Shown: positions 15,163-64,000 of the stretch, piece after piece
Numbering within the stretch: the stretch's first letter is position 1
How the letters are laid out: every line of letters begins with the position of its first letter
IMG/VR virus record: IMGVR_UViG_3300010885_032796
Coordinates: 56,050 to 120,049 of that record
Source of the DNA: a virus
Length of the DNA: 64,000 bases
Reading direction: 5' to 3' (one strand)
Program-made: the position numbers and the translations under genes
Notes under the pieces: generated by a model
Told to the model about the DNA's origin: nothing
The model's database searches: none
The model's input: only the letters and a program-made list of their open reading frames with translations

Positions 15163-16089
15163 TTACTTGAAGTCAACGCGAGCCAGACCGTTGGTATGGC
15201 CGAAAGAGCCACCCTGTGTCTGGTAGGCAAAGTACTCAAGCATGAAAGCTTCACGACGGATGTACATCGTGGTGGGTTCCAGCTCGTAGTTCTTGCCGAT
15301 GAACTTGGGCGAGGCAAACATAAAAAGACTATCGTCGGGGACCAAATCGCGCTTGATAGTCACAATCCAACGGCAGTTGAGGAAGTTAGTTTCCGCCCAG
15401 CCGTTCTTGATGATGTCCTGCGAGAAGTCACCGCCCATTTCGTCGCGGCCGAACTTCAGCAGCTCCTTGATGGTGATGTTATTCACCAAGCAAGTTTCAA
15501 CTTCGAAGTGGCTGGACGTACGGGGCATGACCTTCAGGGCGTCAACAAGGGTCTCACGAGTGATACCGCCGCTGATCTCCTCGTACTGCACATAGCCAGA
15601 AGCCGGATTAGTGGCGCCAGCGGTGGGCAGCACAGCATTGAAGGCAGCAATGAACTTGCTATCTTCTTCAGCCAGCATGTCCTTGATCATGTTGTCCGAC
15701 AGAACCTGACGAATGTCGATCACATACGTCCGCAGCTCGTCGACGTCCTTCACAGCGCGAGGCGACACGATCCGGTCAAACATGACGCGGTAACGTGGGC
15801 CACGGATGTAGAAGTTAATCGGGAGCGTCGCGAACGGAAGCGACACAGCCGCCGGGGAATCGGGTTCCTTGTCCACAACCTTAACGGGCTTGTCAGTATC
15901 AACCTGACGGTCAAGCTCGTCGTTGGTGATGGTCAGCGGGGGCATAATCCGCCGATAGAACCCGTCTTCACGCATCTTGGTGCGCGTGAAGTCGTTAACA
16001 GCGTCGATGGCCTGCTTCTGCATGCCGGGGGTATCGAGCTGCTCAAAAAGAGTCTCATTGAGCAATTGAACTTCTTGCTGAGTGGGCAT
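15163..16089 (-). CDS. Major capsid protein (HK97 fold)
   Basis: Start chosen at ATG 16089, behind GGAGGT; an earlier in-frame ATG at 16104 overlaps that ribosome site. The 308-residue protein has the layout of phage capsid subunits: a helical N-arm, a long helix with DVDELRTYVIDIRQVLSDNMI, and beta strands around YRVMFDRI and CRWIVTIKRDLVPDDSLFMF. It is preceded in the operon by a decoration-like gene, a scaffold-like gene and the prohead protease, which fits a head assembly cluster. It forms the capsid shell. Confidence 0.8.
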   Translation of the reverse strand: MPTQQEVQLLNETLFEQLDTPGMQKQAIDAVNDFTRTKMREDGFYRRIMPPLTITNDELDRQVDTDKPVKVVDKEPDSPAAVSLPFATLPINFYIRGPRYRVMFDRIVSPRAVKDVDELRTYVIDIRQVLSDNMIKDMLAEEDSKFIAAFNAVLPTAGATNPASGYVQYEEISGGITRETLVDALKVMPRTSSHFEVETCLVNNITIKELLKFGRDEMGGDFSQDIIKNGWAETNFLNCRWIVTIKRDLVPDDSLFMFASPKFIGKNYELEPTTMYIRREAFMLEYFAYQTQGGSFGHTNGLARVDFK

Positions 16090-16127
16090 TATTGGAACCT
16101 CCATGTTCCTAGTAGTTAGTAAGTGGG

Positions 16128-18586: not shown

Positions 18587-19423
18587 TCATGTGACATAAT
18601 TTTGCAGTACACAATGGTTTGTTGTCAACCAATTCTTTCCATATTTTTCGCAAACAACGGCGAGGGCAGCAATCTTATACAACGCGTAATGTTGCGCAAG
18701 TGCTGTTTCTGCATTACTGCTCGCCCGCTTCTCCGATGGAAACTCAACTGATTGAACGTTACGCAATGCAGCCAAATAAGCGCGTTTTTCAACGTTACTC
18801 GGCAACACGCTGTGCGTATAACTCACACGCTCTGCCCACGCTCTAGTGAGCGGCGAAGCAGCGGGTGCAGGTAAATATGCGTTGTGTTCAAGCTGGCTCA
18901 CAATGTCTGCATCGTTAGCCAACTTAGAGAAAATGTTAGGCAGCGCATATGCAACAGCGCCTACCAGTTTCTCGTCCGCAGACTTAACTGTCAACGCTAA
19001 GAAATCCCGCAACGGCAGAATTACACCAGCGTCGGCAAGTCCACGTAACACCTCGGCCATTTTAACAGATTGGCACTGCATAACATCAATAGCTGGTTGC
19101 ACATCTCGCGATGTTGCAAGCGCTACTTGTGTCCAACTCGGCGCCATGTGTGTAGCTTGCTTCTCTGCCTGTACCAGCTCAGCCAATACTTCCAGTTGCA
19201 GTTGTGCATACTTGGATGTAACGCCATCAGTATCAAACCCAATCGGAGCTGTTACGCCAAGCTGCTCAGCCAGCTCTGCGCCTGACAGCGTGACTGCGCC
19301 AGCGGCTTTTTCCAGCCGACCGGACACATAGGCAATACGGTCAGCCGGGCGGAAAACGTGGGAGATATCGAAGAAACTGGGGTTTGGATTATCAGCGTGC
19401 AGCACATGCCCATCTTCAAGCAC
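18587..19423 (-). CDS. C-terminal part of prohead protease, in frame after an amber codon
   Basis: A 278-residue frame that continues the protease frame exactly, after TAG at 19441-19439. The codons directly after TAG read RNIGRVLEDGHVLHADNPNP. The possible start GTG 19423 has no convincing ribosome site. The segment VLHADNPNPSFFDISHVFRPADRIAYV is of the kind that normally follows CSxCGNxAxTRxEYCD in one protein in related phage proteases. The rest is helical with several cysteines and may hold the self-cleavage or core-binding region. I infer that it is made by readthrough of the amber codon, or that the gene is interrupted. Confidence 0.6.
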   Translation of the reverse strand: MLEDGHVLHADNPNPSFFDISHVFRPADRIAYVSGRLEKAAGAVTLSGAELAEQLGVTAPIGFDTDGVTSKYAQLQLEVLAELVQAEKQATHMAPSWTQVALATSRDVQPAIDVMQCQSVKMAEVLRGLADAGVILPLRDFLALTVKSADEKLVGAVAYALPNIFSKLANDADIVSQLEHNAYLPAPAASPLTRAWAERVSYTHSVLPSNVEKRAYLAALRNVQSVEFPSEKRASSNAETALAQHYALYKIAALAVVCEKYGKNWLTTNHCVLQNYVT

Positions 19424-19438
19424 GCGGCCAATGTTGCG

Positions 19439-19441
19439 CTA
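19439..19441 (-). other. In-frame amber codon inside the protease gene
   Basis: The minus strand reads GGA TTG TAG CGC AAC. The upstream and downstream frames are the same, with no frameshift, so one base change or suppression of TAG would give a single 486-codon protease gene. Confidence 0.85.
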
Positions 19442-20047
19442 CAATCCGCCAGCTTTACAATGGCCGCCGCTCTCGACTGCATCACAATACTCAGCGCGGG
19501 TCTTGGCTGTGTTGCCGCAAGCAGAGCACTTATCAAACGGAATCTTGCAGGCCATAGAAACGGCGATGTCTCTGTCTTGCGACAGCTTCTCCATTTCTTT
19601 GTCTGCAATCAGCCCGCCATTACGGTCGGCAGCTTCTTTCGAGCCGTTCAGCGCAACAACAAGTTCGATCCGGCGCATGGGTTCGTGGTAAGCAGACGCC
19701 TTTACGATACCGAAGCTTTTGGCTTGATCCTTGTTGGCGTGGTCGCGATAGAACCGAGCAAACTTTGTGAACGTCGGGTGATACCGCTGGCAGCATTCGC
19801 GCGTGAAACCGTCGCCGTTGCGGTTCGGGCCGTAGTCTTCCGTAGCGCCAATAGCGATCATGTGTACGGGAATCTCGTCTTTGGCAAACTTGATGTTTTC
19901 AAGCTTGTGCGCAAACTCCGCGCCGGCCCGTTTGATCAGGTCAGCCTTGTCTGAGCCGAGCAGCCCGCGACTAGATAACTTAATCAACGAAGCAACTGGC
20001 TCGCTGAAGTCTTGCGCGTGCGGCTGGATAACTTTGATCATGCTCAT
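19439..20047 (-). CDS. Prohead maturation protease, N-terminal catalytic part
   Basis: A 202-residue frame (MSMIKVIQPHAQDF...). It contains IGATEDYGPNRNGDGF, then FYRDHANKDQAKSFGIVKAS and MRRIELVVALNG, a layout of phage prohead serine proteases (herpes assemblin-like fold), with the His of RDHANK a likely catalytic residue. It continues to CSACGNTAKTRAEYCD and stops at TAG 19441-19439, in the middle of a region usually continuous in such proteins. It cleaves scaffold and other head proteins during maturation. It is followed by scaffold-like and capsid genes, supporting the role. Confidence 0.7.
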   Translation of the reverse strand: MSMIKVIQPHAQDFSEPVASLIKLSSRGLLGSDKADLIKRAGAEFAHKLENIKFAKDEIPVHMIAIGATEDYGPNRNGDGFTRECCQRYHPTFTKFARFYRDHANKDQAKSFGIVKASAYHEPMRRIELVVALNGSKEAADRNGGLIADKEMEKLSQDRDIAVSMACKIPFDKCSACGNTAKTRAEYCDAVESGGHCKAGGL

Positions 20048-22773: not shown

Positions 22774-25155
22774 TTACGAGTTAGCGACAGAGCTGAGATC
22801 GACGTCCTGCGCGGCTTCTTCTGGGTACGCCTCAATCGTCTTCTGCTTCAAGAACAGAATCACGTCGCCCAGCATTTCAAAAGCATTGCGCAGCGAATCT
22901 TCCAGCTCCGGCATGTCAGACTTGCCGTACCGCTCAGCGAACCGGTCGCCGTGCCAGTAAAACATGAATAAGATACGGCCGAGCTTGTCGAGGCCCTTGG
23001 TCAGATCGCCCATGTAACGATCAACCATACCGTCATCGCGGACAGCCTTGAGCATGCTGCCGATCATTGCCGTGTCGAACACCTCGCGCTGACCGCTTTG
23101 GGCTGCGTCTGTGATCGACCGGATGTCTTTCTTGTCCAGCAGCGTGTTGGGGTTGTAAATACTGCGGTCTGTGTTGCTGGCGCTCATACTCGACACGGGC
23201 ACGCCCACGTCGATACCCAGCTGGGTTGGCACACTTGTCCCCATGATGGTTTCGCCGCCCATCACCGGACCCGGGTCGGTCGGGGCGTTAGGCGCGCTGT
23301 TAATCATCATTGGCCCGCCGTACGGGTCGGCGTACTTGATGCGACCGCTGTATTTGCGCTTCGCGGCAGCCTGCTTCAGAATGTCGCGAGCGGCCGTTTC
23401 ACGCAGACCGTGAGTCTGCACCAGCGATACAAGGCCGCTCATGGGGCCCATGCGCTCGCCGTTGATCTCCACCGTCGTGCCGTTGTGGTACACAGTCAGC
23501 GCCGCCGTCTTGTTCAGCAGCGACAGCTGTGCGTCAGCCAGATTGCCCGGCATCAGCGGCGAATTTTTGCTTTCGCCGCAACCACACGCATTTTGACCGG
23601 CTTCTTCGGCGTCAGCTACGTCATCTTCGCCGGGGGAGCACTTTAACGACTTGAAACCCTCTGGCACGAAGATATCGCCCATGCTCGACCGCAGCTTGGA
23701 GCCCTTGCTGGAGCCGAGATGGATACGCACACCGTCGCGATACTTGTCGTAGTTCAGCTGATCCGTGTAGCAGCAGCCGCTAATGTGGCCGCGGGGTGGA
23801 TGCTTGCTGTGGTCTTCCAGATGGACTTCGTATGATGTCGTCCCGTATTGGCTTTCGCCGTACTCACGAATCATGCGCACAGGCACAGTGGCGTCACCGC
23901 TCTTGTTCAAGAGCATAACGCGGCCCCTACCAGACGGCAGGCTTGTGGCTTCGGGCAGCGCGTCGAACCACTCGTCAAACTCTTCACCTTCAATGCGCGA
24001 CAGCGCAAAAACTTGGTCAGCCCGCGTGTTAATCCAGTCTGGCGTGCCTTCAACGCGCACAACCGTAATGAAGTCAGCGCGCTTGGCAGCACCTTGTGGA
24101 TGCACAGCAACGTAACAGCGCTCGACGTTACCCGGCTTGACAAGGATCTCGTACAGGCCAGACGACGATGGCGTGAACAGCTTCTTCTCAACTTGAATGT
24201 CGTACGGCACCGAAACGTTGTCGCGGTCCCGCTCGTCCTTGATCAGCACGCCGTCCCGCAGCAGTTTCTCTTGATCGTCTTCACTGTAACCGGCAGGTAG
24301 CTTAGTTTGGATCGTCAGATCAAACGTAATAATCTTCAGCCCCTTTGCAGACGCTGGCTCGGCTGGCGCCTCAGACAACACGCTGGCCACTTTTACCTGA
24401 CTCTCGCGAGCCTTGGCCAGTGCAACAGCTTCCTTAATGATATCTAAACCGTGAAACTCCGAGATAGCTTCGGCCACAGCTGGCGCATACTGGCATGTTT
24501 TGACCAGCATGTTCAGCGTTTCAAGCCGGGCTTCTTTCAGAAACTTCTTCAGGTCCATCAGCTGACCAATTTCAGCAAAGACGGCATTTGTGTTCTGCGT
24601 AGCGGTCTTGGCAAATGGCGCCATGACAGCAGTGATCATCTCTTTGAGCGTCGGCTGTGCGGAGCCGAACTTAGCCGGGCTGCGCGAAAGCTGCGTAAAA
24701 TCAGGGTTACGCTGGCCAAACTGCGAAAGATTCTTGTCGATGCCGCTGCCGAGAATATTGGGCTTGCGGTTCAGCAGGTAGTTAATCCAGTTCTCTTTCA
24801 ACGGCACGAAAACATCCTGATTCTTGATGTACAGGAGTTCGTGGCCCTTGAGATCGCCGTTCAGAAAGAACACAGGCGCGTACAGCCACTGCGAACCAAG
24901 CTTGAACGCAAACACACCAATAGCCTTGGTGTTTTCGCGGTTCCGGTCGAGCAGCTGAAAACCGATTTCGTGCTCAAGGAGCTTGGGCGCCGAGTCGCGG
25001 AGATAAGCGTGCGCCAGATTGCTGAACGACTGCTCAAATGAGGTGTCGTCGCCCCGGCCGCCGATGTCAGCTTGTTTTGTCTGGCTTCGGTCATGCGACC
25101 GAACGACTTTCAGCCAATGCTGCCACGACGCTTCTTTGCTTTTCTTGTTGTACAC
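22774..25155 (-). CDS. Large conserved virion protein of unknown function
   Basis: Start chosen at GTG 25155, directly behind GGAGGTGGCC; earlier starts at 25191 and 25167 overlap or precede that ribosome site. The 793-residue product has an N-terminal region with FKLGSQWLYAPVFFLNGDL, a basic central part, a Cys cluster (CCYTD, and later CSPGED...ACGCG, about residues 465-530) and a helical C-terminus with DKLGRILFMFYWHGDRFAERYG. It follows the polymerase C-terminal gene and precedes head genes. A portal-like or head-tail role is possible but not shown by a motif. Confidence 0.5.
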   Translation of the reverse strand: MYNKKSKEASWQHWLKVVRSHDRSQTKQADIGGRGDDTSFEQSFSNLAHAYLRDSAPKLLEHEIGFQLLDRNRENTKAIGVFAFKLGSQWLYAPVFFLNGDLKGHELLYIKNQDVFVPLKENWINYLLNRKPNILGSGIDKNLSQFGQRNPDFTQLSRSPAKFGSAQPTLKEMITAVMAPFAKTATQNTNAVFAEIGQLMDLKKFLKEARLETLNMLVKTCQYAPAVAEAISEFHGLDIIKEAVALAKARESQVKVASVLSEAPAEPASAKGLKIITFDLTIQTKLPAGYSEDDQEKLLRDGVLIKDERDRDNVSVPYDIQVEKKLFTPSSSGLYEILVKPGNVERCYVAVHPQGAAKRADFITVVRVEGTPDWINTRADQVFALSRIEGEEFDEWFDALPEATSLPSGRGRVMLLNKSGDATVPVRMIREYGESQYGTTSYEVHLEDHSKHPPRGHISGCCYTDQLNYDKYRDGVRIHLGSSKGSKLRSSMGDIFVPEGFKSLKCSPGEDDVADAEEAGQNACGCGESKNSPLMPGNLADAQLSLLNKTAALTVYHNGTTVEINGERMGPMSGLVSLVQTHGLRETAARDILKQAAAKRKYSGRIKYADPYGGPMMINSAPNAPTDPGPVMGGETIMGTSVPTQLGIDVGVPVSSMSASNTDRSIYNPNTLLDKKDIRSITDAAQSGQREVFDTAMIGSMLKAVRDDGMVDRYMGDLTKGLDKLGRILFMFYWHGDRFAERYGKSDMPELEDSLRNAFEMLGDVILFLKQKTIEAYPEEAAQDVDLSSVANS

Positions 25156-25201
25156 GGCCACCTCCATGCGGCACTGCAGACAATCGGACACTGCTAATAA
25201 T

Positions 25202-25234
25202 TTACAGTGTTTCAGCCCCTATATCCTACTGTAA
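25202..25234 (-). other. Inverted repeat over the stop of the beta' C-terminal gene
   Basis: Arms TTACAGT and ACTGTAA, 19 bases apart, enclose or touch the TAG stop at 25228-25226. The stem is 7 bp and not followed by a T-run. It may be a weak terminator or RNA-stability hairpin. Confidence 0.35.
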
Positions 25235-28200
25235 TGGTTTAGGCGCTTCCAGCGGCTTCCAGCCACTCGTTGTGCCAGTTACGCCAAACTGCTCGCCGTG
25301 AGCCAGCGCTGGGACATAGCTACTACCGGCCGAGTCGCTGCTCAGCCCGCGGTGCACGCTATTCAACAGGCCGCGCTCCTGATAAGAACCGAGCATTCGC
25401 GTCATCCAGTCAGGATCGTTCGAGATATTCGACATGCCGCGCACCATCTCTGGCTCAAACGGCGGCGGAGCTTTATGCGCTTGAATACTGTTAATGCCGT
25501 ACTTGTTCAAATTTGTGACGACATTTTTACCAATCTTTGTGCCGATTGAATAGTGCAATACTGGCTGCTCAAGATAATGGCCAGTTAACTCACTCGGTCG
25601 GCCGGCGACAGCGCCAGTTCTAGGCGTCCAGCCGCGCTCCAAAACAGAGTACGGAACAATGTCGTCGGGCGAATATTCACCCTGCTCGTCTGTCATGCGC
25701 ACGTGGTTAACCAGCCCGCGCGAAAGAAGCTCGATGTTTCGCCGGTGCGCTGGAATACCACTGTTTTGCATAACTTGCCGCATGGCTTGCACAAAGTACC
25801 GCCGGCCTTCACCAATGCCCTTGTGCTTAACGACTTCAGACGGGTTTGGCATGCCGTCAGACAACGAGTCGCCGGCCTCAAGTGTGTCGCCGCGCTTTAC
25901 AATCACCTCGCGCTCAGTCGGCACGTAGTGATCCTGCCCGTTGATCTGGACATAATGCCCGCCCTGTGGCGCTGGCCGAATACCCTGAACTTGGCCGTCT
26001 GTTTGAGCGTGCGTTGCGCCGCTTGGATACTTTTTCGGCACCTGCACTAGCGCGTTTAGCGCCTTGAAACCAGAAATAGCGCCAGCGCCGCCCACGCCGC
26101 CAGAGTGCTTTGATGAAATCTGCGACTGCGTGACCGGCTCAGAATTAGAGACAACAAGCCCGTTTTCCAGTAAAAACAAATGATCCGAATGCGCAATGTA
26201 TATGTCGTATGTCGGCCTGACGCCCGCGTCTTCTTCACGAACAAACCGCGCCCGTGTTGAGTCGTTTGTCTTTTTTGCCTCTACAACAATCTGCATTAGT
26301 TTTTCGTGTTTTACGCCGGGAATATAAAAATCTGCCAGTTTTTGTACCATGTCCCCGGCGTTGATTGTGAACACATACATGGGTCGAGCATTGTCGGCCT
26401 TCTTTTGCGACAGGCGCACAGCAGATCCGTAAATACCAAAACGCACCGCAAGAAGCTCTTTAATCCCAACAATTAATTCGCGGCTTGTGGCTCCAAACCC
26501 AATGCCATTGCTGTGTTCGTTTTTAATCACGTAGCCATCAGTGGCAAGAATTCCAGCAATATATGCACGTATTGACGCGTTTGACCACGACCATATTGTG
26601 CGCGGCAACTGTTTTTCGTAGGAATGACAACCCCATAAACCCTCGCCGCTCAGCCAATGCTTGAGCCGATTACGGTACTGCTTATTGTCAGTTTCTTTCA
26701 TGTACACAGAATCTTCATCACGAATTCGATATTCGGGGTGCGCGCCTGTCAAACTAAAACCCAGCGGACGCAATAACGCCGGTAAGTCATCGGCTAGCTC
26801 TTTGTCATAACACGTAAATCGCACAGCGTTCTCAGTTGTCAGGCAGCCGTCGCCAGTCAGGATACCGGCCAATAACGCGTACGGCTCTTCGCGCGTATCT
26901 GTGTCATCAAAACTTGTCGCGAGCTTAGCGCAAATATAGTCATGCGCGTTTGGCGGTTGAAAACCAAGCGGGCGCGTAGCTATGGCGTCAAAGTACGCCA
27001 GCCGGTTAGCGGCAGCTTTGTTAGTGCGAACAACAACTTCAGTCAGAATTTTGTGCTCACGCGTGCCGATAACTGACAGGTAGTCTTCGTCGTTTACGGC
27101 GCCTGTGCCGCGGCGATACAGCACACGTACGCACGATTTATCGCCGCTGTACTGCTGCGCCAGCACAGGTACCGGGCAGACAACGCCAGAAATTGAGCAC
27201 CCCAGCACAATGTCACCCGCAACGATGTCCTCAATCTTTTTCACAGACCCGTCAGCCATGCGTACGCGCGTGCCTGCGGCTAAACAGAGCGCCTGCGCGG
27301 CGGCGATTCCGACGTAGTCGCCAATCGGCGGGAGCCGGCCTTTTTCGCGGTAGCCGACGTCTTTGGCGTAAACGCCGCCGTCTTCAGGACCGCCAGTAAT
27401 AGGGCTGCGGACTAAGATATCTTTAACGCCCGACTGCCGTAAGTCCTGCAGGATTTTGCCCGTAAGCCGCGTGTTGCGCTTGTAGCCGCCAGCCGCGCGC
27501 GACAGAAACGCACCTTCGTTGTCCGGGTCGTCTACTTCGGTCGGCATGCCGCGCTCTTCGGCCGTCCGTAAACGCTCGGGATCGTCCTCGTCGTCATGCG
27601 TAACAAGTAGCCTGTGCGCCATTTGCGTAAGCTGCTTGCCGTAAAACCCGGCGTCAGCCGTGGCGGTCTTGAGGTCGATAACGCCTTTGCGCGTACCGAA
27701 CGCGCCGGCAAAATACTCGACCGGCGTCAAACCAGCACCGTAACCGCGCAACACGGGAATTGGAATTGGCTCGCCGCGGTGGTCTAGGTACTGCATGTCA
27801 GCGCCAATCAACGAGTTCAGCTGGAACTTATTGCCGACGCCACTGCCGAGAATCTGATGGGCTAACGGGTTATCCTGCCCCTGCGCCTCGGTAAATACTT
27901 TCTCGACCAGATCGCGCTGCGCGTTTGACGCAAGTTCGAGCAACTTGAGGTTCTTCTGCTTTTCGGTCGACTGCCGGTCGCTCAAAATCTCGTGCATCGC
28001 CGCGTGCGTCTTTATCTGCGCGTTACGTGCCGCCAGTGTTGGCCGAATGTCGTTCAAACCAAAAGACAACCCGTTTGTAGAGTAACCAGCGTCCCGGCCC
28101 ACGTCGTGCAGCGCCTTCATCACCTTTTTGTATTTGTCAGGGTGCTGTTCGGCTAGTTGAGTGGCCAACGTGCCCATCGTTTTCTTTGTCAGCACGCGCT

Positions 28201-28267
28201 CGTAGTCACGCATTTCAGGCGGCAAAGCTTCGTTGATCAGAACTTGACCAAGCGTAGTTTTCAGCAT
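25226..28267 (-). CDS. RNA polymerase beta' subunit, C-terminal half, with intein
   Basis: Start set at ATG 28267; a TTG at 28285 is possible. The host protein has the beta' pattern after the catalytic centre: LTPVEYFAGAFGTRKGVIDLKTATADAGF (about 180-210), then the trigger-loop region GIAAAQAL / SEPVTQSQISSKHSGG. An intein splits this motif. After removal about 633 residues remain. The catalytic DFDGD lies in the separate fused beta-beta'N protein, so the two must join in one enzyme. Downstream, RGDTLEAGD and the C-terminal helices fit a beta' tail. It transcribes phage genes, perhaps from within the virion. Confidence 0.85.
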   Translation of the reverse strand: MLKTTLGQVLINEALPPEMRDYERVLTKKTMGTLATQLAEQHPDKYKKVMKALHDVGRDAGYSTNGLSFGLNDIRPTLAARNAQIKTHAAMHEILSDRQSTEKQKNLKLLELASNAQRDLVEKVFTEAQGQDNPLAHQILGSGVGNKFQLNSLIGADMQYLDHRGEPIPIPVLRGYGAGLTPVEYFAGAFGTRKGVIDLKTATADAGFYGKQLTQMAHRLLVTHDDEDDPERLRTAEERGMPTEVDDPDNEGAFLSRAAGGYKRNTRLTGKILQDLRQSGVKDILVRSPITGGPEDGGVYAKDVGYREKGRLPPIGDYVGIAAAQALCLAAGTRVRMADGSVKKIEDIVAGDIVLGCSISGVVCPVPVLAQQYSGDKSCVRVLYRRGTGAVNDEDYLSVIGTREHKILTEVVVRTNKAAANRLAYFDAIATRPLGFQPPNAHDYICAKLATSFDDTDTREEPYALLAGILTGDGCLTTENAVRFTCYDKELADDLPALLRPLGFSLTGAHPEYRIRDEDSVYMKETDNKQYRNRLKHWLSGEGLWGCHSYEKQLPRTIWSWSNASIRAYIAGILATDGYVIKNEHSNGIGFGATSRELIVGIKELLAVRFGIYGSAVRLSQKKADNARPMYVFTINAGDMVQKLADFYIPGVKHEKLMQIVVEAKKTNDSTRARFVREEDAGVRPTYDIYIAHSDHLFLLENGLVVSNSEPVTQSQISSKHSGGVGGAGAISGFKALNALVQVPKKYPSGATHAQTDGQVQGIRPAPQGGHYVQINGQDHYVPTEREVIVKRGDTLEAGDSLSDGMPNPSEVVKHKGIGEGRRYFVQAMRQVMQNSGIPAHRRNIELLSRGLVNHVRMTDEQGEYSPDDIVPYSVLERGWTPRTGAVAGRPSELTGHYLEQPVLHYSIGTKIGKNVVTNLNKYGINSIQAHKAPPPFEPEMVRGMSNISNDPDWMTRMLGSYQERGLLNSVHRGLSSDSAGSSYVPALAHGEQFGVTGTTSGWKPLEAPKPLQ
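26144..27286 (-). mobile_element. Intein with LAGLIDADG endonuclease inside beta'
   Basis: 381 residues from CLAAGTRVRMADGSVKKIED (Cys1, block A) to DHLFLLENGLVVSN followed by Ser (+1). Block B is IGTREHKIL. Two LAGLIDADG-type motifs are present, LLAGILTGDG and YIAGILATDG, each with an acidic residue, so the endonuclease may be active. The penultimate residue is Ser rather than the usual His before the final Asn. It is inserted at GIAAAQAL|SEPVTQ, at the trigger-loop motif of RNA polymerase. Confidence 0.88.
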
Positions 28268-28268
28268 G

Positions 28269-28508
28269 TTAAGGCGTCCAAACAAGATTCTGAATTGGTT
28301 TTGGCTTGAAGTCTGTAACTACAACTGTCTTATCAACGCCTAACGCGCGTAACACGTTATGGAAATCTTTTTCGCCCGGCGTTGAGTACACAATAGCTTC
28401 GTCAACTTGAATAGCCACAAAGATCGGATTGCCCATGTCATCTTCGACAATGATGCTGTGGGCCTTCTGTTCGACTGGCTGCAAGTGATGCTGCGTCTTA
28501 ACTAGCAT
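28269..28508 (-). CDS. Small protein between the polymerase genes
   Basis: A 79-residue protein (MLVKTQHHLQPVEQKAHSIIV...) with mixed strands and helices. It overlaps the Pro-rich gene start by 11 bases and ends one base before the beta' C-terminal start, so it is translationally coupled. It could be a small subunit or assembly factor of the polymerase, but only the position suggests this. Confidence 0.5.
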   Translation of the reverse strand: MLVKTQHHLQPVEQKAHSIIVEDDMGNPIFVAIQVDEAIVYSTPGEKDFHNVLRALGVDKTVVVTDFKPKPIQNLVWTP

Positions 28509-29241
28509 TGCCTGACAGACTCCGGCTAAGCGCCATAACGGCCGCGGCTTTTAACTGCATCTGAGTTGGGCCCGTATACGACGGGTCTTCAAACTGCACC
28601 AAGTCAGCCGGCACCGGTCGGCCGATGTACGACGCAGACTTTGGTTGCTCTGCGGCAAGCCACCACGCGCCCTTAACTGCGCCGGCGTTTGGATCAGCGC
28701 CCGGAGGCAGCGGCCCGCCCGGAGGAAGCGGCCCGCCCGGATCCTGCGGGCCAGCCGGGGCATTTGGATCTTGCTGTGCGCCAGCATTGGGGTCTTGCTG
28801 GGGCGGCGGCGCCATTGGCCCGCCCGGCAATGCAGACTCAGCTGGCGGGGCGCCGTTGCTGCCGGGAGGAAGTACCAACGACTCAGGCGGCACTTGTACA
28901 TTCATGGCGTTCATGATCGCCGTAAGCTGCTGCTGCATGTTGTACAGCCGGAAGTCGATCATCTTCATCATGTCTTCAGGCTTGGGTTTCTGCGCTGCAG
29001 GCGCAGCCGCCGGGGCCACTGGCGCAGCAGCGGCTACGGGAGCCTGCGGTTGCATAGCGCTCATTGCGGCGGCATTTGGGTCCATCGGCGGCGCGCCGCC
29101 CATCGACGGATCAGCTGGAGGTGCCGCGCCGGCCATTGCCGGATCCATTGGAGGTGCGCCGCCCATCATAGGGGGGCCGTCAGCCTGCTTCGCAAAATAC
29201 GCGCGGGCAATCGAGATCAGTTCTGGATTAACGGTGTGCAT
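28498..29241 (-). CDS. Pro/Ala/Gly-rich low-complexity protein
   Basis: Start set at ATG 29241 behind GGAGGT; in-frame codons further up, including the ATG at 29253, precede that site. The 247-residue product has repeats of GGAPPMDP type and GGPLPP type, with a short helical core (MMKMIDFRLYNMQQQLTAIMNAM) in the middle. It sits between the two polymerase genes. Low-complexity Pro-rich proteins with a helical core can be linkers or oligomerising virion proteins. No function is evident. Confidence 0.5.
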   Translation of the reverse strand: MHTVNPELISIARAYFAKQADGPPMMGGAPPMDPAMAGAAPPADPSMGGAPPMDPNAAAMSAMQPQAPVAAAAPVAPAAAPAAQKPKPEDMMKMIDFRLYNMQQQLTAIMNAMNVQVPPESLVLPPGSNGAPPAESALPGGPMAPPPQQDPNAGAQQDPNAPAGPQDPGGPLPPGGPLPPGADPNAGAVKGAWWLAAEQPKSASYIGRPVPADLVQFEDPSYTGPTQMQLKAAAVMALSRSLSGNAS

Positions 29242-29263
29242 AGAAACCTCCATGTTGAGCACG

Positions 29264-32200
29264 TCATGTATTATCTTCCACAATATGTACCGGGGTGTCC
29301 ACTTCTATTTCCCCGCGGTGATAGGCGTGAACAGCGTCTTTCTTTGTGCGATACACCCGCGGTTTAGCTTTGTTGTTGATCCGACTAGCCGCCAAATACA
29401 GGCCAGTCTGATAATCTTTGTTCGGCACGTAATGCGCTTTGAACGACGAAGCCGAGAATAAATTCTTGCTCGGCAGCATTTTCTCGACGGCTTCTTTTGC
29501 GGCGTCTTCGGTGCTGGGCACGTGATACTGCATAGCGTCGCCGTCAAAATCTGCGCCGAAACCCTTGGTGATAACCGGGTTAACTTCCATGACTTTGTTC
29601 TTGGTGAGCCGCGGATAGAACGCCATCATGCCATACCGGTGCAACACAGGCGCGCGGTTAATCACAATTGGCCGGCTGTTCATTTGCGTGTTCAACTCGT
29701 CTGCGGCCGCTTTGCTCTTGTCAACAACAGCCTGTAACGCCTGCATTCTTGGTAAGCCGCGGCGCACAAGGCCACGCACAACGAATGGCTTGTAGATATC
29801 CCACGCTTTTTCTTCTGGCAAGGCTACTTCGTCCATGTCCAAGTCTGGGTTGGGCGTAATGACAGCACGCCCGACAAGATCGACTGTGCTGCTGAGAAGT
29901 TTACGCTGCATTGTGCCGTACTTGGGGGAGTTGCCAAATACGTGCGACAGGAAACCTTTTACGTTACGCTCGACGTTTTTGGGCTGCTGCGGATCACCCA
30001 ACCCAGTCACGGCCTTCAGCGAGTCGTATACGCCCAGACGCTCGTCGCTATATTCAGACAGTGCACCAGATGCTTCTTTCAGCGCGCCGTTAGCGTCCAG
30101 CAGCTCTTTGTACAGATAGTTAGCGTCAGCCACGAGCGGTAGTTTCTTGGGGCCCATCGTAGATACGGGCCTGAAGATTGGCGGCAGTACGGGGACTTTA
30201 GTCAGCATCCAGTCTTTCGGATGCACGCCGGTAGCCTGCGAACTCTTGAGGAAACCCAATCGGCGCACAGCCGCGTCACGAAGAGTACTCCGCCCGCTTT
30301 TGATATCTTCACGGGCTTGCTCTATGGCGTGCGGGACGTTTACTTTGGCCAAGGCTTTTTGAATTGCCTGCGGGCCAGTTGAGTCAAACAACGTCGCTTG
30401 GCCAGCCAGTACGCCGCGGAACTGCTTCTCTGTCAGACCCAACACGCGCCTAATCGGGTCTTCCATGATTGGGTTGGGCATTGGCTCGTGCAGCGTAATC
30501 TTCGACCAGCGATTGCCGCCGTGTCCGCCTGTCAGCGCCTCGTCAAACAAGCCGCCCGGAACTGGCTTCATGCGCCCCTTCCAGTCCACAGTCTCAGAGT
30601 TCTGGATTTCGCGCGTACCAGATAGCTGATCGACGTCTTTATCCGTCATCGCCATGATGTTCGTCTTTGTGCCTTGCCGCGTCACGTTGATTCCAGACGC
30701 GCGCAGCTGGCCGACAAACTTCTCGTACACATGCGGGATCTTCGGAAGCGGCGGGGCGTAACCAGCCATAAACTGCGACCAGTAATCAGGATTAGCTTGC
30801 CCGCGCACCATTTTGGCATCACGGATAACTTTGCCGGCACCGTGAGACAACAGCGCGCCAAGGTCCAGCATGCCGACGCGCTTTGCACCTTCCGAGCCGC
30901 CCTTTGCTGGCGTACCCTCGGCGGTGTAACTTCCCATTGACCGGCCCTGCGCCTTGGATTCGCTGGTGTGGTGCAGCTTCATGAAGAACCGGCTGCCAGT
31001 TAACACACCCGGAATCTTGCGGCCTGTTTCAGGGTCAAACAGGTCTTCTTTGTCAGATAGGCCGTGCTTGTCCAACTCACTCTGGGCAAAATCAATCAGA
31101 CTGTTTTGGTTGTCGAAGTCTTTGATCTTGTACGGCTTACCGGTCTTGTCCGCTACTTTACCCAGCGTAGCCTCAATGACCTGCGCTGGATTTACGCGGC
31201 TGATTAAACCAAGTGGACTAACCAGCACTTCAAATGGGTTGCCGTCTTTATCATGCGGCATCTGGTGATCTGGCACAATTTCGGCAATCACACCCTTGTC
31301 GCCAAATCTACCTGTGAGCTTGTCGCCAACTTCCATGACCGACTGGTTTTTTACAACAACGCTCACGCCCTTGTCTGTGTGCTCTACGTCGGTAACAACC
31401 CCGGGCGAATGATGATCCCACGTCACGGTTTCGTCTGTGAAACTACCAGCACGACCGCGATGCACTTTGCCGTACACCGTGTCTTTTTTCTTCGCGACAA
31501 GCACAAGGGGATCGCCGTAGTTAACAGTTGTGCCCTTTTGAATAGCGCCTTTGTCGTCAAAGTTGTCGAGCAGCTTCTTGTCGTACACAGCGGGAAACAA
31601 GCTGGTAAAAGCTTTCTTGCCTACGTGCGTGTTCTCGTCCCATTGCGCTTCATGCTGGTACATGTGCTCGCTGGTCAGACGCTTGGCCGCACTCTCTGAG
31701 ATCACGCTGGCGTCTTCGTAGTTCTTGCCTCTAAACGGCAGATAGGCCACGCGCATGTTCAAGCCAAGTGCTGCGCTACCCTTGTCGTCCGTGAAGTTAG
31801 ACCGCGCAAGAAGCTGGCCGGGTTTTACAACGTCGCCGGGCTGAACCATCGGCGTCTGGTGTAAAAACGTCTTCCGGTTGTACGGCATGTCGTTGTACAG
31901 CTCGATAGTCTTCTTGTTGCCGTCTTTATCGCGCAGCACAATTCCATCAGGAGACACCGACACAACCTGCCCGTGTGCTTCTGCGCGCGTAGCTCCAAGC
32001 CGCGTACCCATCTCGTCTTCGTGCGATGTGGTAGGGTCGTCTGCTGTGGCTGATTGGACATGCGGGGCCTGCGCGCCAACGAGCGGCAGTGCTTGGGTGA
32101 ACATGCGCGCACCCATGATGACGCGGTGGCCTTTCACCATGGTCTTCATCGGCACCATGTTGCTCAAGCTAGACAGCGTTGAGTCCATGTGCGGTAAGCT

Positions 32201-33664
32201 GTATTGCGTCTCTTCACGCGGCACATACTTCAGCCGGCCGTTGACAAGCGCAGCGACCACGGGCAACTTGTTGTGCTCTTCGCCCGGGAACACAAGCGGC
32301 GTGTCGGCCAGCTCTTGCGGCGTTTTGAAGATCTTTTCGCCGGTTTTGTTATCTATAACGGGCGTATAGATCTTGCCGTCAGCGCCCTTCATGGCACCGC
32401 GGGCAAAACGCATGTCTACGCCGACTTTTCCGCTCTCTGGTGTGCGGAGATAATCGATGAACCCAAGGTGGCTGGGCTGGACGCTACGTGATTCAGCGGG
32501 CACAGCATCGAGCGACGATATGCCGCCTTCGCCCATGCGCGTAACGCGGGTCTGGTGGTCGTAAATCTCAGCCGGGTTGATTTCTTCCAAGCTCGACCCA
32601 AGGCCAGAGCCAATTAAGGCAGCTTGAATAGACTTGTCGAACACGCTGCTGGGAATGTGGTCTACGGACTTCTTGGCCGTTGCGCGCCACAGAAGCTTAT
32701 TCAGGCCCATGCGGTCTTTGCCAAAACGCTCCGCAATCAGATCTTCAGGGCCAGCGACAGACTGAAACACCATGTTGTCACGGTCGTCTGGGTCTGACTC
32801 GCGCCTGTTCACAGCCAACAGCTTTTTGGTGATGGCTAAAATAGTTTCAGGGTTAATAGTCGTGTGCCCTGTGCCGAGCGTGCGGGTTGTGACTTCGGGA
32901 TCGAGTTGCGTCTTGGCAAACTCGGCCATGATTGCTTGCTGCTTGGCTACAGAATCAGCGCCCTCGACTTGTTTGTTCACAAGCCGCTGATAGAGCTTAT
33001 CCAGCGTGCCGGCGTCGCCCTTCTCCATATTGACTGCGGTGATGTCGTTACCCCAGTGCTCGCGCAGCTGAGTGTCAGTGACGCCCATTTGCTTGAGCAG
33101 CGGCATAAGCGGAATTTGCGCCTGCCCGATGCTGATCTTGAACACGCCCGTAGCAGGGTCGAGAAAATACCGGTGGGAGCGGCCTTTACCGGGAAGCGTG
33201 TTAACGTGCGCTTCGATTTCGCCGTTGTCTTTTTCGCGGGTAAATACACCGGGGCGCAACCGCATCTGGTGCGCTAGCGTGTACTCGACGCCGTTGTTGA
33301 CGAACGTACCGGAGTCTGTGAGATACGGCACATGGGCAATCGTCGTCTTACGCTGGCCAACTGTCTCGCCGGTTTTGTTATCTATAAGATTCCACGTGCC
33401 CTGCATTCGGCGCGACAACGAACTTTTTGTCAGAACTGCGCGCTTCTGATCAACGCGCGTAAACGTTTCTGGGCCAGCGTAACTAACGTCGGCAAGGTTC
33501 AACGAGTACAGGTCGTTTTGTACCGGTTTGATCGTCTGTGCGCTTTTCAGCGCCTGATCAAAGATATTCTGCCGCATACCAGACACGTCCCCAAACGCTC
33601 GCATGGCGGGCGCGGGAAGTGGTTGCGGCGGAGTAGTAAGCGGCGGCAGTTCGGGCGCTGGCAT
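29264..33664 (-). CDS. RNA polymerase beta subunit fused to N-terminal half of beta'
   Basis: A 1,466-residue protein. The beta part has GKNYEDASVISESAAK (about 646-661), GDKLTGRFGDKGVIAEIVPD (about 780-799), PLGLISRVNPAQVIEATLG and the clamp-proximal GSYTAEGTPAKGGSEGAKRVG (about 911-931). The beta' part starts at about 970 and has KVPVLPPIFRPVS, KYGTMQRKLLSSTVDLVGRA (1248-1267), RPIVINRAPVLHRYG and the catalytic GADFDGDAMQYHVP (DFDGD at 1372-1376). The chain ends shortly after, and the rest of beta' is a separate gene. Natural beta-beta' fusions exist (for example Helicobacter), but here the join runs only through the catalytic half. No sigma or alpha gene is seen in the window. Confidence 0.9.
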   Translation of the reverse strand: MPAPELPPLTTPPQPLPAPAMRAFGDVSGMRQNIFDQALKSAQTIKPVQNDLYSLNLADVSYAGPETFTRVDQKRAVLTKSSLSRRMQGTWNLIDNKTGETVGQRKTTIAHVPYLTDSGTFVNNGVEYTLAHQMRLRPGVFTREKDNGEIEAHVNTLPGKGRSHRYFLDPATGVFKISIGQAQIPLMPLLKQMGVTDTQLREHWGNDITAVNMEKGDAGTLDKLYQRLVNKQVEGADSVAKQQAIMAEFAKTQLDPEVTTRTLGTGHTTINPETILAITKKLLAVNRRESDPDDRDNMVFQSVAGPEDLIAERFGKDRMGLNKLLWRATAKKSVDHIPSSVFDKSIQAALIGSGLGSSLEEINPAEIYDHQTRVTRMGEGGISSLDAVPAESRSVQPSHLGFIDYLRTPESGKVGVDMRFARGAMKGADGKIYTPVIDNKTGEKIFKTPQELADTPLVFPGEEHNKLPVVAALVNGRLKYVPREETQYSLPHMDSTLSSLSNMVPMKTMVKGHRVIMGARMFTQALPLVGAQAPHVQSATADDPTTSHEDEMGTRLGATRAEAHGQVVSVSPDGIVLRDKDGNKKTIELYNDMPYNRKTFLHQTPMVQPGDVVKPGQLLARSNFTDDKGSAALGLNMRVAYLPFRGKNYEDASVISESAAKRLTSEHMYQHEAQWDENTHVGKKAFTSLFPAVYDKKLLDNFDDKGAIQKGTTVNYGDPLVLVAKKKDTVYGKVHRGRAGSFTDETVTWDHHSPGVVTDVEHTDKGVSVVVKNQSVMEVGDKLTGRFGDKGVIAEIVPDHQMPHDKDGNPFEVLVSPLGLISRVNPAQVIEATLGKVADKTGKPYKIKDFDNQNSLIDFAQSELDKHGLSDKEDLFDPETGRKIPGVLTGSRFFMKLHHTSESKAQGRSMGSYTAEGTPAKGGSEGAKRVGMLDLGALLSHGAGKVIRDAKMVRGQANPDYWSQFMAGYAPPLPKIPHVYEKFVGQLRASGINVTRQGTKTNIMAMTDKDVDQLSGTREIQNSETVDWKGRMKPVPGGLFDEALTGGHGGNRWSKITLHEPMPNPIMEDPIRRVLGLTEKQFRGVLAGQATLFDSTGPQAIQKALAKVNVPHAIEQAREDIKSGRSTLRDAAVRRLGFLKSSQATGVHPKDWMLTKVPVLPPIFRPVSTMGPKKLPLVADANYLYKELLDANGALKEASGALSEYSDERLGVYDSLKAVTGLGDPQQPKNVERNVKGFLSHVFGNSPKYGTMQRKLLSSTVDLVGRAVITPNPDLDMDEVALPEEKAWDIYKPFVVRGLVRRGLPRMQALQAVVDKSKAAADELNTQMNSRPIVINRAPVLHRYGMMAFYPRLTKNKVMEVNPVITKGFGADFDGDAMQYHVPSTEDAAKEAVEKMLPSKNLFSASSFKAHYVPNKDYQTGLYLAASRINNKAKPRVYRTKKDAVHAYHRGEIEVDTPVHIVEDNT

Positions 33665-51351: not shown

Positions 51352-51677
51352 TTGCCAGCCTCCATCGCCTTCAACAGCCGTACAGCCTTGAGCAGATCAA
51401 TGGTGACAGCGCCACCGTTTTCGTCTCGCACCTGAATGCGCGATGTGCCGTCTTTGTCAGCAATGATTGCCCAGCCGTAGATGCCGTCTTGCGTGCGGGC
51501 ACCAACGTATGCATCGCCTCGTTCACAAGCCAACGTGACGTGTTGCATTTTGTCGGGGCCGCAAAAGAACGCAAACTTGTCGTCGTTATGCGTGCTGAAT
51601 ACAAACTGAGTCGGCAACGCAGCTGCAAGGCACAGGGCGCAAAGAGCAGAAAGAACACAAGCAAAAGCAGTCCGCAT
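51348..51677 (-). CDS. Small exported protein
   Basis: Start ATG 51677, behind AGGAGTTTTATC. The 109-residue product has a signal-peptide-like start (MRTAFACVLSALCALCLAAA), then a mature region with strands. It has two Cys in the signal, which could make a lipobox-like site (CALC). It probably acts in the periplasm. Function unknown. Confidence 0.55.
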   Translation of the reverse strand: MRTAFACVLSALCALCLAAALPTQFVFSTHNDDKFAFFCGPDKMQHVTLACERGDAYVGARTQDGIYGWAIIADKDGTSRIQVRDENGGAVTIDLLKAVRLLKAMEAGK

Positions 51678-51731
51678 GATAAAACTCCTAGGTAAATGAA
51701 ACAAAACTCAACTCAGGTTCACCGCGTTAAC

Positions 51732-51998
51732 TTATTCGCTGATATTCGCTTCTGCCTGCCGCTTTGAGCACGGGCAGTCTGGGTGATGCACGAAGTGGTG
51801 TATCGACTCTACCCACAAATGGTTATCGTGCGTGACGGTCTGCATGCCCCACGCCGCTGACGGACTAACGGCAGTTGTTTCACTATTAAGGGGCTTGGGT
51901 ATTCGCATCATCAGCTGGAACACCAGCGCAATCAGCACTAAGCTTACGCCTCCAGCCACCATACCGTCAACCAGCGTAAAACCACTACGTTGATTCAT
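51732..51998 (-). CDS. Small protein with prepilin-like leader
   Basis: An 88-residue protein starting MNQRSGFTLVDGMVAGGVSL. The sequence SGFTLVDGMVAGG matches the type IV prepilin cleavage pattern (G|FTL(V/I)(E/D)), with Asp in place of the usual Glu5. A hydrophobic helix follows. The C-terminal half is His- and Cys-rich (HHFVHHPDCPCSK). It could be processed by the host prepilin peptidase or interfere with pili. The call rests on the N-terminal pattern only. Confidence 0.5.
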   Translation of the reverse strand: MNQRSGFTLVDGMVAGGVSLVLIALVFQLMMRIPKPLNSETTAVSPSAAWGMQTVTHDNHLWVESIHHFVHHPDCPCSKRQAEANISE

Positions 51999-52005
51999 GT
52001 TGCAT

Positions 52006-52383
52006 TTACAACAACCTTTCTATGATTGCCTTTGTGCCGGCATTGAACTTATGCAAAATATCAATTTCTTTGTGGGCTGCCGCAAGCCGCAGCCGGGCAA
52101 TCTCCGCGTCGCCCCGTAGCCGCTTGATCTCTTCTACCATGGCCGCTGACAACTCGTCGCAGCGTACACTGCCGGCTCTCTCTACCACCAGCCCAAGATC
52201 CGTGAGCTGCTTCTCTATGGTTGTGTGCTCGTCGCAGGAGCTTGAGATTAGCTCGTCGTTTAGCTGGTTTATGCGGTCAATTTCATCAAGCACAAGTTGG
52301 TCTTCATCGCTCCAGCTAATCCGGCTGCTGAACTGGCTGTAAACACGCGTACGAAATTTTGCAATGATGTCACTGTCAAACAT
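52006..52383 (-). CDS. Helical coiled-coil protein
   Basis: Start ATG 52383, with AAGGGGAC before it. The 125-residue product has an N-terminal helical region and a long coiled-coil-like C-terminus (EEIKRLRGDAEIARLRLAAA). It follows the first copy of the KQKEGDKD leader cassette. Function unknown. Confidence 0.5.
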   Translation of the reverse strand: MFDSDIIAKFRTRVYSQFSSRISWSDEDQLVLDEIDRINQLNDELISSSCDEHTTIEKQLTDLGLVVERAGSVRCDELSAAMVEEIKRLRGDAEIARLRLAAAHKEIDILHKFNAGTKAIIERLL

Positions 52384-62781: not shown

Positions 62782-64000
62782 TTAAGCTCTAGTCGTCTGT
62801 GCTGCCAAACGAGCTTTATCGCGTTCTTGCTGCTTTCGGCTGCCTTCTTCGCGCAGGATCTTCCGAAACTGCTCGTTAAGTTGCTCTTTCTCGCCTGTAA
62901 GTCTCTCCAGCATCTCGTCGCCTGTTCTGTGGCGCTTGTACCCCATGAGCTTGCCGATAAAGCTAGGGTCTTCGGAGCTACTTAGATATCTTTGAACTGC
63001 AACGTTCTTGAGTTCTTCCGGCAACCCTACGTGCGAGTCAAACCGCAGGCCACGACCCTGAGCTTGCTGGGAGCGCGCCTCGTTCCAGTGCGGGTCCAGA
63101 AGCTGAATCAAGCTAGTCCCGCGCGTGCTTATTCCCTCGGCACCAGCAGGCCCGATAAGCAGCGCCCTGAGCTTGCCGGCGTTGTAAGCGTCTACAGCAG
63201 CTTGGCGGGCCTTGGGTGAAACTCCGCCGTGGAAGAATCCATGCGGAATCTTGGCTTTGTCCAGCGCAGCAGCATACGGCGACAGGCCAGAGTCTACGAA
63301 GTTCGAGTAGATGATGGCTTTCTTGCGCTTGTCGCTCTGCAGTGTTTCTTGCAGGTTCTTGAAAGCTGCCTGTAACTTAGACGACTGGCCGAAAGCTTTC
63401 CCGGGGTCTTTGTCTACCCGAAACGGCTGCGTGGAAAGACTCACTTGGCGCAGACCCGACATGAACGAATTGAGCTTGGCTAACTCTGCACGAGACAACG
63501 GGAACTCATGGTCCATCTTCCACAAGAATCCGGGCGGAACTTGCGTCCGAATAGCTTTCTGGATCTTCTGCTGCTCGGCTGACAAGGGCACCCGAATAGT
63601 CTGGGCGTTCACATTCACGCCTTCCGGTGTCTTGCTTGCTTGGTAGTCGACGTGGCCGCGCAGCAACCCACGCAACTCATTCTCATGGGCAACAACTGGC
63701 TTAACCCCAGCTTGAGCGCCACTGAGCCAGCCCCTGAAGCCCGGCCAGACTTTCTTCTGCCCCACGTATCTTTTCTCGAAGTCCTCTGGCGTGATCTGTT
63801 TTTCGTGTACCAATGAAAGCAAGTTAGCCAAATCACTGGGGTTGTTTGTGATGGGCGAGCCACTGAGCAAGAGAAGGCGCTTGGCGTTACGCGCTACTTC
63901 TGCGGCAGCTTGGGAACTAGCTGCGTTGGGATTACGAAGCCTGTGTGCCTCGTCCATGATGACAGTATCGGGCTGTTCTGTAAATTTTTTGCCCATACCC
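62782..64000 (-). CDS. SNF2-type helicase (N-terminus beyond window)
   Basis: Visible about 405 residues are the C-terminal two thirds of an SNF2/DEAH helicase: DTVIMDEAHRLRN (motif II), LLLLSGSPITNNPSD (motif III), AIIYSNFVDSG (IV), GPAGAEGISTRG (V) and SQQAQGRGLRFDSHV (VI, with the Arg fingers). The gene starts upstream of the right edge. It may be injected or act in host takeover, since it sits with virion-like genes. Confidence 0.8.
   Translation of the reverse strand, partial: GMGKKFTEQPDTVIMDEAHRLRNPNAASSQAAAEVARNAKRLLLLSGSPITNNPSDLANLLSLVHEKQITPEDFEKRYVGQKKVWPGFRGWLSGAQAGVKPVVAHENELRGLLRGHVDYQASKTPEGVNVNAQTIRVPLSAEQQKIQKAIRTQVPPGFLWKMDHEFPLSRAELAKLNSFMSGLRQVSLSTQPFRVDKDPGKAFGQSSKLQAAFKNLQETLQSDKRKKAIIYSNFVDSGLSPYAAALDKAKIPHGFFHGGVSPKARQAAVDAYNAGKLRALLIGPAGAEGISTRGTSLIQLLDPHWNEARSQQAQGRGLRFDSHVGLPEELKNVAVQRYLSSSEDPSFIGKLMGYKRHRTGDEMLERLTGEKEQLNEQFRKILREEGSRKQQERDKARLAAQTTRA

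What the first reader, a model, noticed from the sequence alone, without database searches (positions are those of the whole stretch)
25226..33664. RNA polymerase with beta fused to the first half of beta', rest separate
The 1,466-residue gene has beta motifs and then beta' through the catalytic DFDGD. The bridge and trigger region is in another gene. Known phage multisubunit polymerases (phiKZ type) split beta and beta', but a fusion that joins beta to beta'N while splitting beta' after the catalytic loop looks unusual.
Basis: partly seen in the sequence, partly recalled or inferred. Interest (0 to 1): 0.85.

Follow-up and report, generated by a model that had tools for sequence, protein, structure and literature searches.

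The report
Phage RNA polymerase with refitted subunits
A widespread group of large bacterial viruses carries its own bacterial-type RNA polymerase in which one whole large subunit and the front half of the other form a single protein chain, while the back half is a separate protein; in one cultured relative both pieces are among the most abundant proteins in the virus particle.

Summary
Window 33664-29264(-) is one 1,466-aa ORF: a complete bacterial-type beta (res 1-995), joined almost without linker to beta' from its N-terminus (res ~1000) through the catalytic GADFDGD, with the beta' zinc-binding domain deleted. The rest of beta' (bridge helix, trigger loop) is in a second ORF, 28267-25226(-), about 1 kb downstream, interrupted by a 381-aa intein. 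It is not an artefact: 76 distinct single-ORF homologues occur in IMG/VR contigs and in cultured phages Arash (Salmonella) and D69 (Vibrio); none carries beta'C in the same ORF, and the best 80 GTDB loci are ordinary rpoB/rpoC. Both halves give congruent trees, so the fusion probably arose once. Each genome tested has one such RNAP and no recognisable alpha; 14 of 15 have a sigma-70-family factor related to Arash Gp10. In Arash virions Gp206 (fusion) has the most spectra, and Gp216 (beta'C), Gp10 (sigma) and Gp217 (SNF2 helicase) are also found (PMC10585845). Best reading: a two-chain, sigma-dependent, virion-borne RNAP for host-independent transcription. The fusion-plus-split layout is not described in the papers I could search; the beta' cut lies near that of phiKZ-type and cyanobacterial enzymes. 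New variant of a known kind.

The parts
29264..33664 (-). beta-beta'N fusion, 1,466 aa, single ORF
30680..33664 (-). beta part, residues 1-995 (complete beta to its C-terminus)
   Evidence: PRK00405 model end 1093/1096 at res 995
31289..31327 (-). beta active-site motif GDKLTGRFGDKGV, res 780-792 (lysines equivalent to E. coli K1065 and K1073)
   Evidence: invariant in the 21 fused representatives
29267..30667 (-). beta'N part, res ~1000-1466, zinc-binding domain deleted at about res 1048
   Evidence: hhalign E 7e-26; no Cys in res 975-1120
29537..29551 (-). catalytic DFDGD, res 1372-1376
   Evidence: DxDGD found in all distinct homologues checked
28498..29253 (-). Pro/Ala-rich protein conserved between the two RNAP genes (ORF listed from TTG 29283)
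   Evidence: homologues in 45 of 66 related loci
28269..28508 (-). 79-aa conserved small ORF between the two RNAP genes
   Evidence: homologues in 38 of 66 related loci
25226..28267 (-). beta'C precursor: bridge helix, trigger loop, C-terminal module, plus intein
   Evidence: rpoC_TIGR 546-1147; AF2 and Foldseek of an intein-free homologue
27617..27730 (-). bridge-helix region of beta'C (res 186-223)
   Evidence: single 36-residue helix in the homologue model
26144..27286 (-). intein, res 334-714 (Cys1 ... Asn|Ser+1), Hint plus LAGLIDADG, inside the trigger-loop motif AAQAL|SEPVTQ
26105..26107 (-). trigger-loop His (res 727, motif SSKHSGG)
   Evidence: read from the alignment
22774..25191 (-). 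homologue of Arash virion protein Gp218
   Evidence: HMM 7e-11
18587..20047 (-). two ORFs together homologous to Arash virion protein Gp222
15163..16104 (-). major capsid protein homologue (Arash Gp226)
   Evidence: 1.5e-34
62782..63999 (-). SNF2-type helicase, cut by contig end; 31% to Arash Gp217, which is in virions

Best explanation
This is the catalytic core of a phage-encoded, bacterial-type multisubunit RNA polymerase rebuilt into two chains: one holds all of beta plus beta' up to and including the Mg-binding double-psi barrel, so both catalytic barrels are covalently joined; the second holds the beta' bridge helix, trigger loop and C-terminal module and matures by splicing out an intein. 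Joining the two barrels could replace the assembly role of the alpha dimer, for which no gene was found. A sigma-70-family factor encoded by the same phages most likely gives promoter recognition, docking on the beta' clamp coiled coil. By orthology with Salmonella phage Arash the enzyme, with sigma and an SNF2 helicase, is packaged and injected, starting transcription independently of host RNAP. Shown: architecture, conservation, active-site residues, common origin, gene content. Inferred: packaging in this phage, sigma-core pairing, intein splicing, rifampicin resistance.
For: Domain content; precise junction and ZBD loss; 76 distinct single-ORF homologues, none with beta'C attached; DxDGD found throughout, E813/K1065/K1073 equivalents kept; AF2 of res 600-1466 (pLDDT 78.7) matches both beta' (8gzh_D 5e-29) and beta (8gzh_C 2e-25) in one chain; beta'C homologue model matches RpoC, 1e-27, with one long bridge-like helix. 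Fused clade monophyletic in both trees. One RNAP per genome; no RNA_pol_L. Gp10-like sigma in 14 of 15 genomes, own contig included. RNAP genes lie in the capsid gene cluster, syntenic with Arash. Arash proteomics: Gp206 3516, Gp216 1210, Gp10 467, Gp217 1148 spectra (PMC10585845); divided by length about 2.3, 2.0, 2.0 and 2.4 per residue, compatible with similar molar amounts.
Against: Virion data are from a relative at ~32% identity; the Arash authors note that abundant intracellular enzymes may simply be carried over, and some proteins there have high counts on only 2 unique peptides. No biochemistry was found for any member. The sigma is divergent (own-contig copy: region 3 5.6e-8, region 4 sub-threshold) and its pairing with this core is untested. 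AF2 models were single chains, not the complex, and the overall superposition is loose (pTM 0.57; rmsd 7-12 A). Penultimate intein residue is Ser, not His, so splicing is not certain.
Confidence: 0.75

Rival explanations
1. The same two-chain RNAP is a middle/late (non-virion) enzyme; its presence in Arash particles is carry-over and early genes are read by host RNAP.
For: Arash authors raise it (PMC10585845); only one RNAP per genome, so no vRNAP/nvRNAP pair as in phiKZ.
Against: Gp206 is the top protein by spectra, and sigma, beta'C and helicase are present at similar per-residue counts; the RNAP genes sit within the capsid gene cluster.
Confidence: 0.2
2. Frame error, assembly join or chimera between separate rpoB and rpoC genes.
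Against: 76 distinct single-ORF proteins from many samples plus cultured phages; beta and beta'N trees congruent; conserved sequence across the junction.
Confidence: 0.01
3. Recently captured host rpoBC, as in bacteria with natural beta-beta' fusions (Helicobacter, Wolbachia), then split.
For: The junction sits at the native rpoB-rpoC boundary with almost no linker; the Helicobacter-type rpoBC model scores best.
Against: Fused clade separate from all sampled bacteria in both trees; best GTDB hits 23-29% identity, ordinary rpoB/rpoC. Helicobacter and Wolbachia themselves were not in the tree.
Confidence: 0.05
4. These are (part of) the 'mReC' phage RNAPs of Weinheimer and Aylward 2020, whose fusion went unnoticed because one ORF satisfied both the beta and beta' searches. 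(A question of naming; compatible with the best explanation.)
For: Members pass both models at over 80 bits and 800 aa; 18 of 76 carry NADFDGD as required; fused members come from IMG samples numbered next to those of mReC1/3 (PMC7481178).
Against: mReC capsids match PF07068; none found in 11 records of this clade, though that search had no positive control. The mReC contigs themselves were not found and supplements were not readable.
Confidence: 0.35

Closest known systems
Salmonella phage Arash RNAP (Gp206/Gp216; PMC10585845) and Vibrio phages D69/D181/D148
   Same: Same fusion over 97% of length at ~32% id, separate beta'C, synteny with capsid genes, sigma factor; SNF2 helicase in Arash.
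   Different: Described only as 'beta' and 'beta'' (the Vibrio records as hypothetical); no intein in beta'C; more genes between the two RNAP genes in Arash.
phiKZ/AR9-type jumbo-phage RNAPs (vRNAP, nvRNAP)
   Same: Phage-encoded, alpha/omega-free, beta' cut after the catalytic barrel; a virion form exists (PMC7598289).
   Different: There beta is itself split and never joined to beta'; core of 4-5 chains, two RNAPs per phage, no recognisable sigma homologue; sequences far more divergent (AR9 only 59 aa matched).
Cyanobacterial/plastid gamma + beta'' split
   Same: beta' divided after the catalytic domain; best structural match is the cyanobacterial gamma chain.
   Different: Beta separate; the phage cut is roughly 65-80 aa upstream of the cyanobacterial one.
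Helicobacter/Wolbachia rpoBC fusion
   Same: Beta C-terminus joined to beta' N-terminus at the same boundary (own knowledge of the family).
   Different: Those carry all of beta' in the one chain; the phage protein lacks the zinc-binding domain and splits beta'.
mReC phage RNAPs (PMC7481178)
   Same: Bacterial-like phage RNAP on a separate deep branch; jumbo-size contigs.
   Different: Reported as beta and beta' with no mention of fusion of their own; T4-like capsid PF07068 not found here.
crAss-like and YonO single-chain RNAPs
   Same: Both catalytic barrels in one polypeptide (literature).
   Different: Highly divergent; crAss RNAP gives no match to COG0085/COG0086 (PMC7481178); not split.

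Membership tests
Bacterial-type multisubunit RNAP (double-psi barrel superfamily) | DxDGD triad on beta' barrel and two Lys on beta barrel | tested here: met
   DxDGD in all distinct proteins checked; Lys equivalents K1065/K1073 in 21/21 representatives
Bacterial-type multisubunit RNAP (double-psi barrel superfamily) | Bridge helix and trigger loop present | tested here: met
   in beta'C ORF
Bacterial-type multisubunit RNAP (double-psi barrel superfamily) | alpha subunit encoded alongside (typical of cellular enzymes) | tested here: not met
   no PF01193 in 12 phage records, while 13 of 14 controls ring
phiKZ/AR9-type jumbo-phage RNAP | beta split into two or more chains, four or five core polypeptides | tested here: not met
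   beta is whole and joined to beta'N
phiKZ/AR9-type jumbo-phage RNAP | two paralogous RNAPs per genome | tested here: not met
   one PF00562 match per genome, 15/15; PF00623 matches all lie in the fusion ORF
phiKZ/AR9-type jumbo-phage RNAP | beta' cut after the DPBB | tested here: met
   cut between rpoC_TIGR 535 and 546
Virion-packaged RNAP | enzyme present in particles | not testable with these tools
   published for Arash only (PMC10585845)
Arash-type fused RNAP clade | beta-beta'N in one ORF, beta'C separate, monophyletic | tested here: met
Arash-type fused RNAP clade | Gp10-like sigma in the same genome | tested here: met
   own contig 51554-52372(-), E 5.5e-19, Sigma70_r3 5.6e-8
mReC | NADxDGD and both beta and beta' hits over 80 bits and 800 aa | tested here: inconclusive
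   window has GADFDGD; 18 of 76 relatives have NADFDGD
Intein | Hint domain, Cys1, C-terminal Asn, nucleophile +1, absent in homologues | tested here: met
   penultimate residue Ser; splicing itself not tested

The most novel reading that the evidence does not exclude
A distinct class of phage RNA polymerase, widespread in aquatic and sediment viromes, that is a two-chain alpha/omega-free core (beta-beta'N + beta'C) delivered from the virion with its own sigma-70-family factor and an SNF2/RapA-like helicase: a pre-assembled, sigma-dependent virion holoenzyme, unlike phiKZ-type enzymes that lack recognisable sigma homologues and use two RNAPs.
Probability: 0.5. Interest if true: 0.75.

Novelty: new variant of a known kind. 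Interest (0 to 1): 0.62.

Why it matters
It shows that the two-subunit layout of the universal transcription enzyme can be re-partitioned: barrels joined, beta' cut, zinc domain dropped, no alpha found. This separates what the catalytic core needs from what cells add for assembly, and bears on how multisubunit RNAPs assembled early on. It gives a testable, cultivable system (Arash in a laboratory Salmonella strain) for a virion RNAP that may use an ordinary sigma factor, and it corrects annotations: a phage clade of some 300 or more contigs currently shows up as 'beta subunit' or 'hypothetical', which would mislead trees built from beta and beta' as independent genes.

Tried and rejected
Assembly/frame artefact: rejected. 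Sigma by Pfam r2 alone: negative in the own contig and all but a few relatives, later found with Arash Gp10 as query. Alpha: none. PF07068 capsid: none, but no positive control. Full-length-beta' phage alignment as query found only 3 IMG contigs, not fused. Search for mReC contigs by similarity to neighbouring-sample members did not reach 3300017989. Rfam and tRNA scans of the window: nothing. No archaeal outgroup could be obtained, so the rooting of the clade relative to Bacteria/Archaea is not addressed. Literature: no held paper that I read or searched describes a beta-beta'N fusion with separate beta'C; subscription papers are not covered.

Full report
What is there. The window is bases 56050-120049 of a 120,049-bp IMG/VR viral record. 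On the minus strand, 33664-29264 encodes one open frame of 1,466 aa and 28285-25226 another of 1,019 aa. The first carries both beta (Pfam Rpb2_6, 8e-53; Rpb2_3) and beta' (Rpb1_2, 3e-24) domains and matches solved bacterial beta (1.7e-70) and beta' (about 1e-49) chains over consecutive stretches. The second carries Rpb1_5 interrupted by Hint and LAGLIDADG domains.

Exact anatomy. The rpoB model PRK00405 is matched to its last residues at position 995 (model 1093 of 1096), and rpoC_TIGR is matched 142-535 by the fusion and 546-1147 by the second ORF. A profile comparison of the junction with bacterial beta' puts the beta' N-terminus (residue 18 of the template) at window residue 1000, P 99.7, E 7e-26, with a gap of about 32 template residues that removes the Cys4 zinc-binding domain; there is no cysteine in residues 975-1120. 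So a complete beta is joined practically without linker to beta', as at the native rpoB-rpoC boundary, and beta' is then cut after the catalytic barrel. Relative to cyanobacteria the cut is roughly 65-80 residues upstream of the gamma/beta'' cut (fusion ends at rpoC1 552/619, beta'C residue 87 = rpoC2 residue 68).

It is real and shared. Searches of IMG/VR found 29, 80 (of 334 matching), 79 (of 329) and 80 (of 145) related loci, overlapping sets. In 177 loci, 76 distinct proteins, one ORF covers the query from beta to the end of beta'N; in none is beta'C in the same ORF, and it usually starts 0.8-1 kb downstream (also 32). The exceptions are contig-edge fragments, one contig with two overlapping frames, and Vibrio D181 (D148 behaves alike), where a homing-endonuclease insert interrupts the gene. 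Cultured phages Arash (Gp206, 1,525 aa; Gp216) and D69 have the same architecture at about 32% identity. A scan of 84,980 GTDB species returned, as best 80, bacterial rpoB/rpoC loci at 23-29% identity.

Active site and structure. DxDGD is found in all distinct proteins checked (GADFDGD 49, NADFDGD 18, others 9); equivalents of E. coli beta E813, K1065 and K1073 are kept (E813 as D in one representative). The trigger-loop His is read as H727 of the second ORF (alignment). AlphaFold2 of residues 600-1466 (43 sequences, pLDDT 78.7, pTM 0.57) matches in one chain both cyanobacterial gamma (5.1e-29) and beta (1.8e-25); an intein-free beta'C homologue (pLDDT 80.8) matches RpoC (1.3e-27) and shows one 36-residue helix at the bridge-helix position. 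These are fold-level matches; the overall superposition is loose.

Evolution. FastTree trees of beta and of beta'N each recover the fused clade as monophyletic (support about 0.97-1.0), Arash and D69 as sister to the IMG/VR members, and bacteria as a separate monophyletic group (1.0); other phage RNAPs (Carin-5, YerA41, Y65, Va2, IMG L129-131) lie on other long branches. The two halves agree, as expected for one fusion event. Without archaeal sequences I cannot root this.

Other parts of the system. Each of 15 genomes has one RNAP, and none of 12 has a recognisable alpha. Pfam sigma region 2 is missed in most, but Arash Gp10, a sigma found in Arash virions, has homologues in 14 of 15 genomes including the window's own contig (51554-52372, minus strand, about 4 kb outside the window; E 5.5e-19), with Sigma70_r3 at 5.6e-8. 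The RNAP genes sit within a capsid gene cluster syntenic with Arash: 15163-16104 is the major capsid protein (1.5e-34), and the ORFs next to the RNAP genes match Arash Gp218 and Gp222. An SNF2 helicase at 62782-63999 is 31% identical to Arash Gp217; an SNF2 helicase correlated with RNAP genes is also reported for phiKZ-group phages (PMC7824862).

Mechanism. In the Arash particle proteome Gp206 has the most spectra (3516), with Gp216 1210, Gp10 467 and Gp217 1148 (PMC10585845); divided by length these are 2.3, 2.0, 2.0 and 2.4 per residue, which would fit similar molar amounts (my own crude calculation; the table also lists proteins with many spectra and only two unique peptides). The simplest reading is a virion RNAP: a two-chain core, sigma-directed, injected and active before host RNAP can be recruited. 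Packaging in this particular phage, sigma-core pairing and splicing are inferences. The rifampicin pocket is altered (E. coli I572 equivalent D in 21/21 representatives, S574 mostly R, D516 mostly E), so rifampicin resistance is predicted.

Intein. Residues 334-714 of the second ORF (window 26144-27286) form an intein with Cys1 and Asn|Ser, splitting AAQAL|SEPVTQ in the trigger-loop motif. It is absent from the beta'C relatives of the first scan. Relatives carry in-frame intein-like inserts at other conserved RNAP sites: beta residues 360, 411 and about 521, and beta'C 208 and about 349.

Comparison with what is known. phiKZ and AR9 enzymes split beta and beta' into 4-5 chains and never join them (PMC7598289, PMC7824862). 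The cut in beta' is shared with them and, approximately, with cyanobacteria; the join is shared with Helicobacter and Wolbachia; the combination was not found described in the papers I could search. Arash's authors report Gp206 as 'beta' only. Whether the mReC set (PMC7481178) consists partly of such fusions is open: members would pass its filters as one ORF counted twice, but the named mReC contigs could not be retrieved. Verdict: observation confirmed, interpretation supported, new variant of a known kind, interest 0.62.

Noticed in passing
window 26144-27286 (-): LAGLIDADG intein inside the trigger-loop motif of beta'C, absent in the close relatives checked; relatives carry intein-like inserts at at least five other sites in their RNAP genes, so the RNAP is an intein hotspot in this clade.
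   Followed up: partly
own contig G000:C1 51554-52372 (-), outside the window: Divergent sigma-70-family gene related to Arash virion sigma Gp10, present in 14 of 15 genomes tested.
   Followed up: partly
window 28498-29253 and 28269-28508 (-): Two conserved genes of unknown function between the RNAP genes: a Pro/Ala-rich protein with a highly conserved core (LKPEQMMQMLDYRLYNMQQQLTAIMNAMGVQVPPESLVLPPG in relatives) and a 79-aa protein; possible RNAP or virion accessory factors.
   Followed up: partly
L165, L170, L163, L115, L113, L084 beta'C ORFs: beta'C has a C-terminal extension bringing it to about 1,110-1,260 aa in some relatives.
   Followed up: no
window 18587-20047 (-): Homologue of Arash structural protein Gp222 is split into two adjacent ORFs.
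   Followed up: no
L033 (Vibrio phage D181), fused RNAP gene: Homing-endonuclease-containing insert splits the fusion gene at about residue 510; D148 shows the same pattern in the hit table.
   Followed up: no
L110/L204 (IMGVR_UViG_3300008108_000260): Fusion broken at about residues 454-478 into two overlapping frames; sequencing error, intron or programmed event not resolved.
   Followed up: no
window 62782-63999 (-): SNF2 helicase related to Arash Gp217, cut by the contig end.
   Followed up: partly
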